A DNA stretch of 64,000 nucleotides from NCBI RefSeq assembly GCF_030270585.1, contig NZ_BSYI01000010.1, positions 1 to 64,000 of the forward strand. Direction: 5' to 3'. How positions within the stretch are numbered: position 1 is the stretch's first letter; every line of letters begins with the position of its first letter. Made by a program: the position numbers and the translations under genes. This DNA is from Paralimibaculum aggregatum. GTDB lineage: Bacteria; Pseudomonadota; Alphaproteobacteria; Rhodobacterales; Rhodobacteraceae. Below the pieces are notes generated by a model that did no database searches, was not told the origin of the DNA, and was given only the letters and a program-made list of their open reading frames with translations. This document shows, piece by piece, positions 29,397 through 31,318 of this stretch.

Positions 29397-29421
29397 TCGG
29401 AGATCATAAAATACAGTCGAA

Positions 29422-29449
29422 TTGACAACACACTGATTTCATTCATAAT
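29422..29449 (+). promoter_or_regulatory. strong sigma-70-like promoter for the metacaspase-SGNH gene
   Basis: TTGACA at 29422-29427 and CATAAT at 29444-29449 are separated by 16 bases, a near-consensus pair in a conspicuously AT-rich island (29397-29480). Transcription would start about 130 bases before the ATG at 29585. No other gene follows in that orientation. Confidence 0.6.
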
Positions 29450-29584
29450 ACTTTATTTAAATACAGTAATAATACCGATTCCGCCAATCGGGAATCGAAC
29501 AGCGCAATTTCGCGCCGCGCCCGGAGATGGCGACGATTTGCACCCTCCGGGCCCCCGGCCTGTCAACGAGAGGGAGTGGCCGCC

Positions 29585-31318
29585 ATGGCCCGCAAGCATG
29601 CACTCTGCATCGGCATCAACGACTATCCCGGCACCGGCAGCGATCTCTACGGCTGCGTCAACGACGCCAACGACTGGGCCGATGCGCTCGAGCGCCGCGG
29701 CTTCGCCTGCGAGCGCCTGCTCGACGCCGCGGCCACCGGCGACGCGATCCGCAGCGGGATGGCAGCGCTCGCCCGCACCGGCACCCGCGGCGACATCGTG
29801 GTGATCGTCTTCGCCGGCCATGGCTCGGTGGTGCCCGATCTCGACGGCGACGAGGCGGACGGCAACGACGAGTGCTGGTGCCCGCACGATGTCGCGAGCA
29901 ACGGCGTGATCACCGACGACGAGCTCAACGCCGTCTATGCCCGGCGGCAGGATGGCGTGCGCTGGGTGCTGATCTCGGATTCCTGCAATTCCGGCACCAT
30001 GTCGCGCCGCTCGCGGCTCGACATCGCCACCGCCGATCTCGCCGCCGCAATGCCGCGCTCGCGCTTCCTGCCGCCCAACTGCTTCCTGTCCGCCGACCGC
30101 GTTGCCACCGCCAGCATGGCCGCCGTCGCAAGGGGGCATGTCGCCCGCATCAATGCGAGCCCGCCGGGCCGGCGCGGCGCGCTGCTGCTCGCCGGCTGCC
30201 AGGAGGATCAGGAGAGCATGGACGCCTGGTTCGGCGGCCGGCCCAACGGCGCCTTCACCTGGGCGGCGCTGCGCACGCTGGAAGAGCTGCCACCGGAGGC
30301 CGATTACGAGGCCTGGTTCGCCGCCATCGGGGACTACCTGCCCTCGTCCCGCTACCCGCAGGAGCCCAATCTCTACGACATCGCCAACCGCCGGAAGAAG
30401 TGGCGCGTTCTGGCCGCCGAGAACGAGAACCCCGCCCGGCCCAAGGCGCCGCGCCCGGCGCCGCAGAGCCGCGAGGACGCGCTCTCGGTCGGCCGCGCGC
30501 TCGGCGCCGAGGCGCTCGGCCAGGCCAGCCGCAAGCGCGACCGGGCCCGCGCCCGCCGCCGCCCGGTGATCGCCGAGGGCGATTCCTGGTTCAGCATCCC
30601 GATCTTCGCCGATCTGCTCGACGAGCTCGAGGACAGCCACGGCTTCGACATCACCAGCGTCGCGCATCACGGCGACACGCTGGAGAGCATGGCCTTCGCC
30701 TTCGCCCAGCGAAACGGCTTCACCCGGCAGTTCCTGAAGATGCTCGACCGCGACACGCCCCCCGAGGCGGTGCTGCTCTCCGGCGGCGGCAACGACATCG
30801 CCGGCGAGCAGTTCCGCCTGCTGATCAACCCGGCGCGGGGGCTGCATCGCGGGCTGAACGCGGCGATCCTCGACGAGCTGGTGCATGTCCGCCTGCGCGA
30901 GGCCTATGCCACGCTGATCGGCGCCATCGGCTTCCTCGCGCGGGAGCGGATCGGCCACGAGATCCCGATCTTCCTGCACGGCTATGCCCATGCGGTGCCG
31001 GACGGGCGCGGCTTCGGCTGGATCAACATCGCCGGGCCCTGGCTGCAGCCGGCCTTCCGCGCCCAGGGCTACGAGGAGCTCGACGAGACCCGCGAGATGG
31101 TCGCCGCGATCATCGACGCCTTCAACGCCATGCTCGCGAGCCTCGCCGGCAGCCCCGGCATGGCGCATGTGCACTACATGAACTTCGTCGACGTGATGCC
31201 GACAGAGGGCGACCACCGCCGCTGGTGGAACGACGAGCTGCACCCGACCGACCGCGGCTTCCGCCTGCTCGCGGAGCGGCTGGCAGCGCGCGTCGAGGCG
31301 GTGCTCGGCGGCGGCTGA
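29585..31318 (+). CDS. metacaspase-like peptidase (C14) fused to SGNH/GDSL hydrolase
   Basis: This 577-residue protein has two enzyme domains and no signal peptide. Residues 4-270 form a caspase-fold p20 domain (HALCIGINDYPG, LYGCVNDANDW) with catalytic His79 in VIVFAGHGS and Cys134 in ISDSCNSGT, as in bacterial metacaspases. After an Arg/Ala-rich linker (about 280-328) comes an SGNH hydrolase: EGDSWFSIP with Ser334 (block I), SGGGNDI with Asn403 (block III) and NDELHPTDRGF with Asp550/His553 (block V). All catalytic residues are present. AGAGGGAG lies nine bases before ATG 29585. The gene is flanked by an AT-rich promoter and 1 kb of gene-free DNA, with no obvious operon partner. Substrates are unknown; a Lys/Arg-specific peptidase and an esterase or acyl-hydrolase are expected from the families. 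Confidence 0.88.
   Translation: MARKHALCIGINDYPGTGSDLYGCVNDANDWADALERRGFACERLLDAAATGDAIRSGMAALARTGTRGDIVVIVFAGHGSVVPDLDGDEADGNDECWCPHDVASNGVITDDELNAVYARRQDGVRWVLISDSCNSGTMSRRSRLDIATADLAAAMPRSRFLPPNCFLSADRVATASMAAVARGHVARINASPPGRRGALLLAGCQEDQESMDAWFGGRPNGAFTWAALRTLEELPPEADYEAWFAAIGDYLPSSRYPQEPNLYDIANRRKKWRVLAAENENPARPKAPRPAPQSREDALSVGRALGAEALGQASRKRDRARARRRPVIAEGDSWFSIPIFADLLDELEDSHGFDITSVAHHGDTLESMAFAFAQRNGFTRQFLKMLDRDTPPEAVLLSGGGNDIAGEQFRLLINPARGLHRGLNAAILDELVHVRLREAYATLIGAIGFLARERIGHEIPIFLHGYAHAVPDGRGFGWINIAGPWLQPAFRAQGYEELDETREMVAAIIDAFNAMLASLAGSPGMAHVHYMNFVDVMPTEGDHRRWWNDELHPTDRGFRLLAERLAARVEAVLGGG

What the first reader, a model, noticed from the sequence alone, without database searches (positions are those of the whole stretch)
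29585..31318. Metacaspase-like peptidase fused to an SGNH/GDSL hydrolase
Both domains keep their full catalytic sets (His79/Cys134 and Ser334/Asn403/Asp550-His553) in one 577-residue cytosolic-looking protein. Metacaspases are known in bacteria, and SGNH hydrolases are common, but I know of no well-described fusion of the two. The gene has its own strong promoter, no operon partner and gene-free flanks, consistent with a horizontally acquired defence, cell-death or polymer-processing unit. Self-processing by the peptidase to release the hydrolase is a testable idea: the linker (280-328) is rich in Arg/Lys, which metacaspases prefer.
Basis: partly seen in the sequence, partly recalled or inferred. 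Interest (0 to 1): 0.72.

Follow-up and report, generated by a model that had tools for sequence, protein, structure and literature searches.

The report
Protease fused to an SGNH esterase
A bacterial gene joins a caspase-like protein cutter to an ester-cleaving enzyme in one protein; related esterases in many bacteria are repeatedly fused to or encoded beside unrelated protein cutters, which hints at an undescribed kind of bacterial self-destruct or attack device.

Summary
Window 29585-31318 (+) encodes 577 aa: a caspase-family peptidase (PF00656, 2.9e-25), then an SGNH hydrolase (PF13472, 2.7e-8), with His79/Cys134 and Ser334/Asn403/His553 in place. Correction: Asp550 is Asn in 53 of 63 aligned rows; Glu551 is invariant. 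The fusion is part of a recurrent pattern: 13 caspase-SGNH ORFs in both domain orders, in three places on the SGNH tree, one clade rejected. Trypsin-SGNH fusions also occur in both orders. Of 80 SGNH relatives, 26 have an endopeptidase of one of seven classes fused or within 600 bp, on the same strand (profiles mostly built from these neighbours); 54 do not. By a crude hydrophobicity test, 0 of 80 hydrolases and 0 of 24 partner peptidases have a signal-peptide-like start. Best reading: an intracellular protease-plus-esterase executioner, like gasdermin-protease or caspase-nuclease systems but with an SGNH effector. No function was tested. The Arg/Lys-rich 'linker' resembles the tail of unfused relatives, so it is weak evidence for self-cleavage. 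One caspase-amidase-GDSL protein was noted in print in 2012.

The parts
29585..31318 (+). caspase-SGNH fusion gene, 577 aa plus stop
29591..30379 (+). Peptidase_C14 (caspase/metacaspase) domain, aa 3-265
   Evidence: fold match
29819..29821 (+). catalytic His79
   Evidence: invariant in 9 of 9
29978..29986 (+). Asp132-Ser133-Cys134; Cys134 catalytic, Asp132 the expected S1-pocket acid (role recalled)
   Evidence: Asp132 and Cys134 invariant in 9 of 9
30380..30469 (+). low-confidence linker, aa 266-295
   Evidence: pLDDT under 50 for 253-287
30470..30556 (+). basic helix aa 296-324, corresponding to the N-terminal tail of unfused SGNH relatives
30557..31315 (+). SGNH hydrolase domain, aa 325-577
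30584..30586 (+). nucleophile Ser334 in GDSWF
   Evidence: 63 of 63
30791..30793 (+). oxyanion Asn403
   Evidence: 63 of 63
31232..31243 (+). block V: Asp550 (Asn in 53 of 63), Glu551, Leu552, His553
29422..29449 (+). sigma-70-like promoter TTGACA-16-CATAAT
   Evidence: a consensus match only
29409..29417 (+). first copy of direct repeat AAATACAGT, just before the -35
   Evidence: 2 copies in the window, 0.02 expected; only pair with 30-55 bp between copies in the genome
29459..29467 (+). second copy of AAATACAGT, after the -10; the pair brackets the promoter (possible operator, inference)

Best explanation
A single-gene intracellular executioner. A caspase-family protease, kept quiet until an internal signal arrives, is tethered to an SGNH esterase that is its partner effector. 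On activation the protease acts together with the esterase, or cuts it loose, and the two damage the cell's own protein and ester-containing envelope components, giving cell death or growth arrest. It is one form of a wider partnership in which one SGNH subfamily is paired with exchangeable peptidases. Shown here by sequence: both domains and their active sites, repeated pairing and fusion in both orders, and lack of evident export signals. Inferred: that the protease controls the esterase, that the target is self, and that the trigger is phage or stress. Not known: the ester substrate.
For: Catalytic residues conserved. 13 fusion ORFs in two orders. On the SGNH tree of 93 rows the fusions fall in three places; one clade is rejected for all 11 in the tree (p-AU 5.9e-29) and for the four caspase-first ones (p-AU 0.0051). 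Trypsin fusions in both orders: SGNH first in L033, trypsin first in L224 and L123 (the trypsin match in L123 is partial). 26 of 80 loci have an endopeptidase (C14, C25, C11, CHAT, S8, trypsin or astacin profile) fused or within 600 bp, every hit on the SGNH strand; farther away only 6 ORFs in 4 loci. Among 54 immediate same-strand neighbours every Pfam family matched at least twice is a peptidase or the nuclease fused to one; of 55 control genes four to five places away none of these families is among the 25 of 85 shown. Signal-peptide-like starts, by a crude hydrophobicity test: 0 of 80 SGNH ORFs and 0 of 24 partner peptidases.
Against: 54 of 80 SGNH relatives have no detected peptidase nearby, so the partnership is not obligatory in cis. 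The window gene has no sensor domain and no partner gene, and no complete defence system was recognised beside it. The basic linker is not special to the fusion. The profiles were built mainly from the neighbours. No assay exists. A T6SS gene is present in the genome, so delivery to a rival is not excluded.
Confidence: 0.45

Rival explanations
1. An antibacterial effector without a Sec signal, delivered by a contractile system or released on lysis, in which protease, esterase and wall hydrolases attack a rival's envelope.
For: SGNH relatives are fused to, or sit beside, predicted wall enzymes: M15 peptidase (L100), L,D-transpeptidase plus SLT (L096) and GH46 (chitosanase family) and L,D-transpeptidase in Rhizobium, GH19, amidase and murein endopeptidase in Geminocystis (annotation). 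The window genome has TssB of a T6SS.
Against: No delivery or immunity-like gene beside the window gene: it is monocistronic, between a LysR regulator and lpdA (names by eye). C14 and CHAT partners are typically intracellular (recalled). No contractile sheath match PF04984 in the genome, though other sheath families were not tried.
Confidence: 0.25
2. An intracellular housekeeping enzyme pair, for instance turnover of acylated proteins or a storage polymer, in which protease and esterase process the same substrate.
For: Metabolic-looking neighbourhood (by eye), ordinary codon use (GC3 0.94), single gene with its own promoter-like site. Most relatives lack a cis peptidase (54 of 80).
Against: Patchy: SGNH profile matched 8 of 385 genomes of the class at E 1e-15; no match in 4 congeners. 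Partner proteases change class while the SGNH stays.
Confidence: 0.2
3. A chance fusion of two common domains with no joint function.
For: Both superfamilies are large; a close ortholog with the same order was seen only once (L050).
Against: L050 keeps both active sites at 54% identity over the SGNH match and 64% over the caspase; three separate places on the tree and two orders.
Confidence: 0.05

Closest known systems
Bacterial gasdermin-protease operons (PMC9612521, passages seen)
   Same: An executor gene paired with caspase-like and other proteases; lysozyme- and phospholipase-type genes sometimes nearby.
   Different: The executor here would be an SGNH hydrolase, not a pore-forming gasdermin, and is sometimes fused to the protease; no defence has been shown.
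Canu caspase-nuclease and trypsin-MBL nuclease pairs (PMC12799240, passages seen)
   Same: One hydrolase family repeatedly acquired with unrelated proteases, caspase among them.
   Different: MBL-type nuclease proenzyme there, SGNH hydrolase here. Proenzyme gating is not shown here. SGNH does not occur in that main text.
Caspase with alpha/beta-hydrolase pairs in vWA-MoxR conflict systems (PMC7159879, passages seen)
   Same: Caspase beside a hydrolase of a lipase/esterase type of fold.
   Different: Different hydrolase superfamily; part of multi-gene NTPase systems. SGNH and GDSL do not occur in that main text.
Chitinophaga pinensis metacaspase-Amidase_2-Lipase_GDSL protein (PMC3501461, passages seen)
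   Same: Caspase and GDSL domains in one bacterial protein, called a seemingly destructive weapon there.
   Different: A single remark, with an amidase; whether its GDSL domain belongs to this SGNH subfamily was not tested.
GSU0716 / 3bij and metacaspases
   Same: Nearest solved relative of the protease half (E 1.5e-27 over 12-258).
   Different: A chain of 285 residues matched only by the protease half.

Membership tests
Peptidase C14 (caspase/metacaspase) | profile match above the curated cut-off | tested here: met
   89.8 against 21.4 bits
Peptidase C14 (caspase/metacaspase) | His-Cys dyad | tested here: met
   His79, Cys134, 9 of 9
Peptidase C14 (caspase/metacaspase) | caspase fold | tested here: met
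   3bij_B Z 17.1 over residues 2-265, although 135-168 and 178-221 are modelled with pLDDT under 50
Peptidase C14 (caspase/metacaspase) | cleavage after Arg or Lys (metacaspase type) | not testable with these tools
   Asp132 present; no assay
SGNH/GDSL hydrolase | profile match above the curated cut-off | tested here: met
   34.9 against 32.9 bits
SGNH/GDSL hydrolase | Ser, Asn and His of the catalytic blocks | tested here: met
   Ser334, Asn403, His553 in 63 of 63
SGNH/GDSL hydrolase | block V Asp | tested here: inconclusive
   Asp550 in the window, Asn in 53 of 63; Glu551 invariant
SGNH/GDSL hydrolase | SGNH fold | tested here: met
   8ik1_B Z 21.1, 323-575
EACC1-associated caspase (NF047832) | score above the NCBI cut-off | tested here: not met
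   22.6 against 140 bits
Gasdermin-protease system | gasdermin executor | tested here: not met
   only C14 and GDSL families match the protein at E up to 1
Gasdermin-protease system | protease paired with an executor | tested here: inconclusive
   pairing seen in 26 of 80 loci; that the SGNH is an executor is not tested
Canu caspase-nuclease | MBL-type nuclease gene beside the caspase | tested here: not met
   no operon partner
T6SS effector | immunity or delivery gene beside the effector | tested here: not met
   monocistronic, no gene called downstream on its strand
T6SS effector | T6SS in the genome | tested here: met
   TssB match, C4:191370-191819, 202.7 bits
Anti-phage defence system | protects against phage | not testable with these tools
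   no assay; PADLOC 'caspase' model matches at 3.3e-13

The most novel reading that the evidence does not exclude
This SGNH subfamily is a new class of cell-death effector in bacteria: an intracellular pro-esterase switched on by exchangeable proteases (caspase, CHAT, C25, clostripain, subtilase, trypsin, astacin), in parallel to gasdermins, with the caspase-SGNH fusion as the all-in-one form.
Probability: 0.25. Interest if true: 0.85.

Novelty: new variant of a known kind. Interest (0 to 1): 0.58.

Why it matters
If the pairing means control, it would add an esterase effector to the known protease-switched bacterial death systems described with pores or nucleases, and it would give a clean testable pair: two active-site mutants in one protein. 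It also shows protease partners changing around one hydrolase family, so the SGNH sequence can serve as bait to find further systems.

Tried and rejected
Full-length model with caspase-only and SGNH-only rows together (A5): MAFFT laid the SGNH rows over the caspase half, so A5 was discarded and A6 used; the caspase half of the model rests on 4 rows and is weak at 135-168 and 178-221.

Empty-site test for horizontal gain: the 7 kb around the gene gives only short weak matches in the 4 congeners, so no test was possible.

Lysozyme identity of the domain shared by L093, L100 and L103: model pLDDT 56.6; best PDB match a g-type lysozyme at E 2.0, best viral match a peptidoglycan-binding-like phage protein at E 0.24. 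Suggestive only, not claimed. No PDB sequence below E 0.29 and no PHROG family matched the L100 copy.

PADLOC on the window: 33 of the 46 called genes were scanned (13 doubtful calls left out). Besides the caspase it gave mad3 (2 members, best 4.6e-28) and mad8 (2 members, best 3.3e-9).

Literature: ten searches, seen as listings. 'SGNH' with 'metacaspase' and 'bacterial' gave one plant paper; 'GDSWF' gave three structure papers on other proteins; 'GDSL hydrolase' with 'caspase family protein' gave one genome report, not opened. PMC8195603 holds none of SGNH, GDSL, lipase, esterase, peptidoglycan; the SGNH review PMC9487903 does not hold 'caspase' (passages seen). The library holds open-licence papers only, so absence is weak.

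VIA-align rows that ran across the low-confidence region (for example 2hsj_B, 137-571) were not used.

Limits on counts. First neighbours: 155 called, 55 kept by strand, gap of at most 200 bp and length of at least 150 aa, 54 scanned because one 3,204-aa protein was left out. Control: 55 drawn at random from 160; 25 of its 85 families are shown, among them M1 and M20 once each. The profiles were built mainly from the neighbours themselves, which favours finding them. The signal-peptide test is a Kyte-Doolittle window on the first 40 (SGNH) or 60 (peptidase) residues of ORFs taken from their first start codon, so late true starts can hide a signal; the open-ended L068 peptidase was not in the 24. 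Rows dropped before the SGNH tree: L044, L045, L048, L049, L092, L119 (near-copies, a split ORF, a duplicate, truncated). The caspase tree is a quick one with 40 viral rows. A6, on which 63 of 63 rests, holds 63 rows chosen from the loci at hand.

Full report
The reported gene is real. Window 29585-31318 on the + strand encodes 577 residues. Pfam finds a caspase domain at 3-265 and a GDSL/SGNH domain within 344-566, all above curated cut-offs. The nearest solved relative of the first half by sequence is GSU0716 (3bij, E 1.5e-27). An AlphaFold2 model made with 63 rows has a well-predicted SGNH half (most ten-residue means above 90 from residue 331 on) and a weaker caspase half, under 50 at 135-168 and 178-221. 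Structural alignment gives Z 21.1 (rmsd 2.5, 194 aligned) to the GDSL esterase EstL5 over 323-575 and Z 17.1 (rmsd 3.7, 209 aligned) to 3bij over 2-265. His79 and Cys134 are invariant in 9 of 9 caspases; Ser334, Asn403, Glu551 and His553 are identical in 63 of 63 rows, while position 550 is Asp in 10 and Asn in 53.

The gene stands alone. A promoter-like site with 11 of 12 matches lies at 29422-29449, bracketed by two copies of AAATACAGT, the only pair with 30-55 bp between copies in the genome. The nearest gene on the same strand ends 188 bp upstream; downstream there are 1,067 bp in which no gene was called, then lpdA on the other strand. The neighbourhood looks metabolic by eye (translations); PADLOC on 33 of 46 called genes gave the caspase plus unresolved mad3 and mad8 matches. 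GC3 is 0.94, within the neighbours' range. The protein was not found in four congeners, and no match in the other 60 genomes of that search covers both domains; the SGNH profile matched 8 of 385 genomes of the class. The two best lpdA matches on plasmids are from roseobacter-type genera, so the host is probably an alphaproteobacterium near them; this is inference.

Related proteins change the picture. On rhizobial and Palleronia plasmids the same two domains occur in the opposite order, SGNH first. A scan of the GTDB species genomes with the SGNH alignment gave at least 519 confirmed relatives, of which the best 80 were kept. Over all loci then held, 13 ORFs carry both domains: the window, nine plasmid ORFs, a Rhodobacter MAG (L050, same order, 54% identity over the SGNH match), Lamprocystis purpurea (L100, with a further M15 peptidase) and a Verrucomicrobiaceae MAG (L112). 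On the SGNH tree of 93 rows, window plus L050, L100 plus L112 (with L103, not fused to a caspase, among them), and the rhizobial group lie in three places. Holding the 11 fusions of the tree together is rejected at p-AU 5.9e-29, and the four caspase-first ones at 0.0051. The quick caspase tree also separates window plus L050, which sit in a clade of 25 rows with 23 caspases of IMG/VR contigs (SH-aLRT 99), from L100 plus L112, which lie in a clade with the rhizobial group.

The partner is not always a caspase. Trypsin is fused behind the SGNH in L033 and before it in Geminocystis L224 and Desmonostoc L123, the latter with a partial trypsin match. Among 54 immediate same-strand neighbours, CHAT matched 6, C25 6, astacin 5, S8 4, Trypsin_2 2 and C14 2; some proteins match more than one. 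Of the 55 control genes none of these is among the 25 of 85 families shown. With profiles built here, 26 of 80 loci have an endopeptidase fused or within 600 bp, and every hit lies on the SGNH strand; 6 ORFs in 4 loci lie farther away. These profiles were built mainly from the neighbours, which is a bias, and 54 of 80 have no such partner. By a crude hydrophobicity test 0 of 80 SGNH ORFs and 0 of 24 partner peptidases show a signal-peptide-like start, though S8, C25 and astacin enzymes are commonly exported (recalled). One locus (L112) adds CHAT with an AAA/STAND-type ATPase and TPR repeats, 2.8 kb away; in L122 the TPR match beside CHAT is below cut-off. Others add predicted wall enzymes: GH46 and L,D-transpeptidase, GH19, amidase and murein endopeptidase (annotation).

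How it most likely works. Shown by sequence: two intact active sites, cytosolic make-up, and a repeated, order-free partnership of one SGNH subfamily with several unrelated peptidase classes. Inferred: the peptidase switches or assists the SGNH enzyme, and the pair harms the cell or a rival. The closest working models are gasdermins cut by neighbouring proteases (PMC9612521) and pronucleases cut by caspase or trypsin (PMC12799240); I saw passages of both. The ester target is open: the fold matches acetylesterases and lipases, and by profile the best solved relative is distant (6nkd, E 1e-5).

On the linker. The Arg/Lys-rich stretch corresponds to the tail that precedes the SGNH core in unfused relatives. 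Over 55 residues it is 24% Arg/Lys in the window, 22-27% in several unfused relatives, 16% in the ortholog L050 and 9-15% in the other fusions; the median of 98 proteins is 16% against 11% in the core. It is predicted as a helix at 296-324. Self-cleavage remains possible but is not favoured by composition alone.

Known or new. PMC3501461 remarks on one Chitinophaga protein with caspase, amidase and GDSL domains (passage). In the ten searches listed under Tried and rejected I found no description of the SGNH-peptidase partnership. I therefore call it a new variant of a known kind: protease-paired effectors, with an SGNH enzyme as the likely effector.

Noticed in passing
29409-29417 and 29459-29467: Direct repeat AAATACAGT bracketing the promoter-like site, the only pair so spaced in the genome; possible operator.
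   Followed up: partly
L130-L209: 80 caspase-family matches on IMG/VR contigs, several 40-49% identical to the window's caspase; no SGNH domain was found in ORFs of 150 aa or more on the match strand of these stretches.
   Followed up: partly
L210-L215: Six IMG/VR contigs encode relatives of the SGNH domain.
   Followed up: no
L224:1468-8402: Geminocystis plasmid gene run: trypsin-SGNH fusion, GH19, TPR, amidase, murein endopeptidase, hypothetical, di-haem peroxidase; the wall enzymes have no evident signal peptide by eye.
   Followed up: partly
L093:3104-3751, L100:11150-11782, L103:5099-5746: Shared domain of about 180 aa after the SGNH with an invariant Glu; only weak hints of a lysozyme fold.
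   Followed up: partly
L037:5732-7777: Caspase fused to a formylglycine-generating-enzyme domain in the same rhizobial locus as an SGNH-caspase fusion.
   Followed up: no
L052:5285-5539 and homologues: Small conserved gene of about 84 aa in 7 loci that also carry a C25 peptidase near the SGNH.
   Followed up: no
L048:9105-11037: In Rhizobium RCAM0626 the SGNH and caspase parts lie in two overlapping frames.
   Followed up: no
L105:10802-13285, L107:9564-11681: Trypsin fused to a DNA/RNA non-specific endonuclease directly after the SGNH gene.
   Followed up: no
L117:6200-10768, L099:5667-9848: SGNH fused to (L117) or beside (L099) a Dyp-type peroxidase domain.
   Followed up: no
window, 33 of 46 called genes: PADLOC mad3 and mad8 matches, two members each, bearers not identified.
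   Followed up: no
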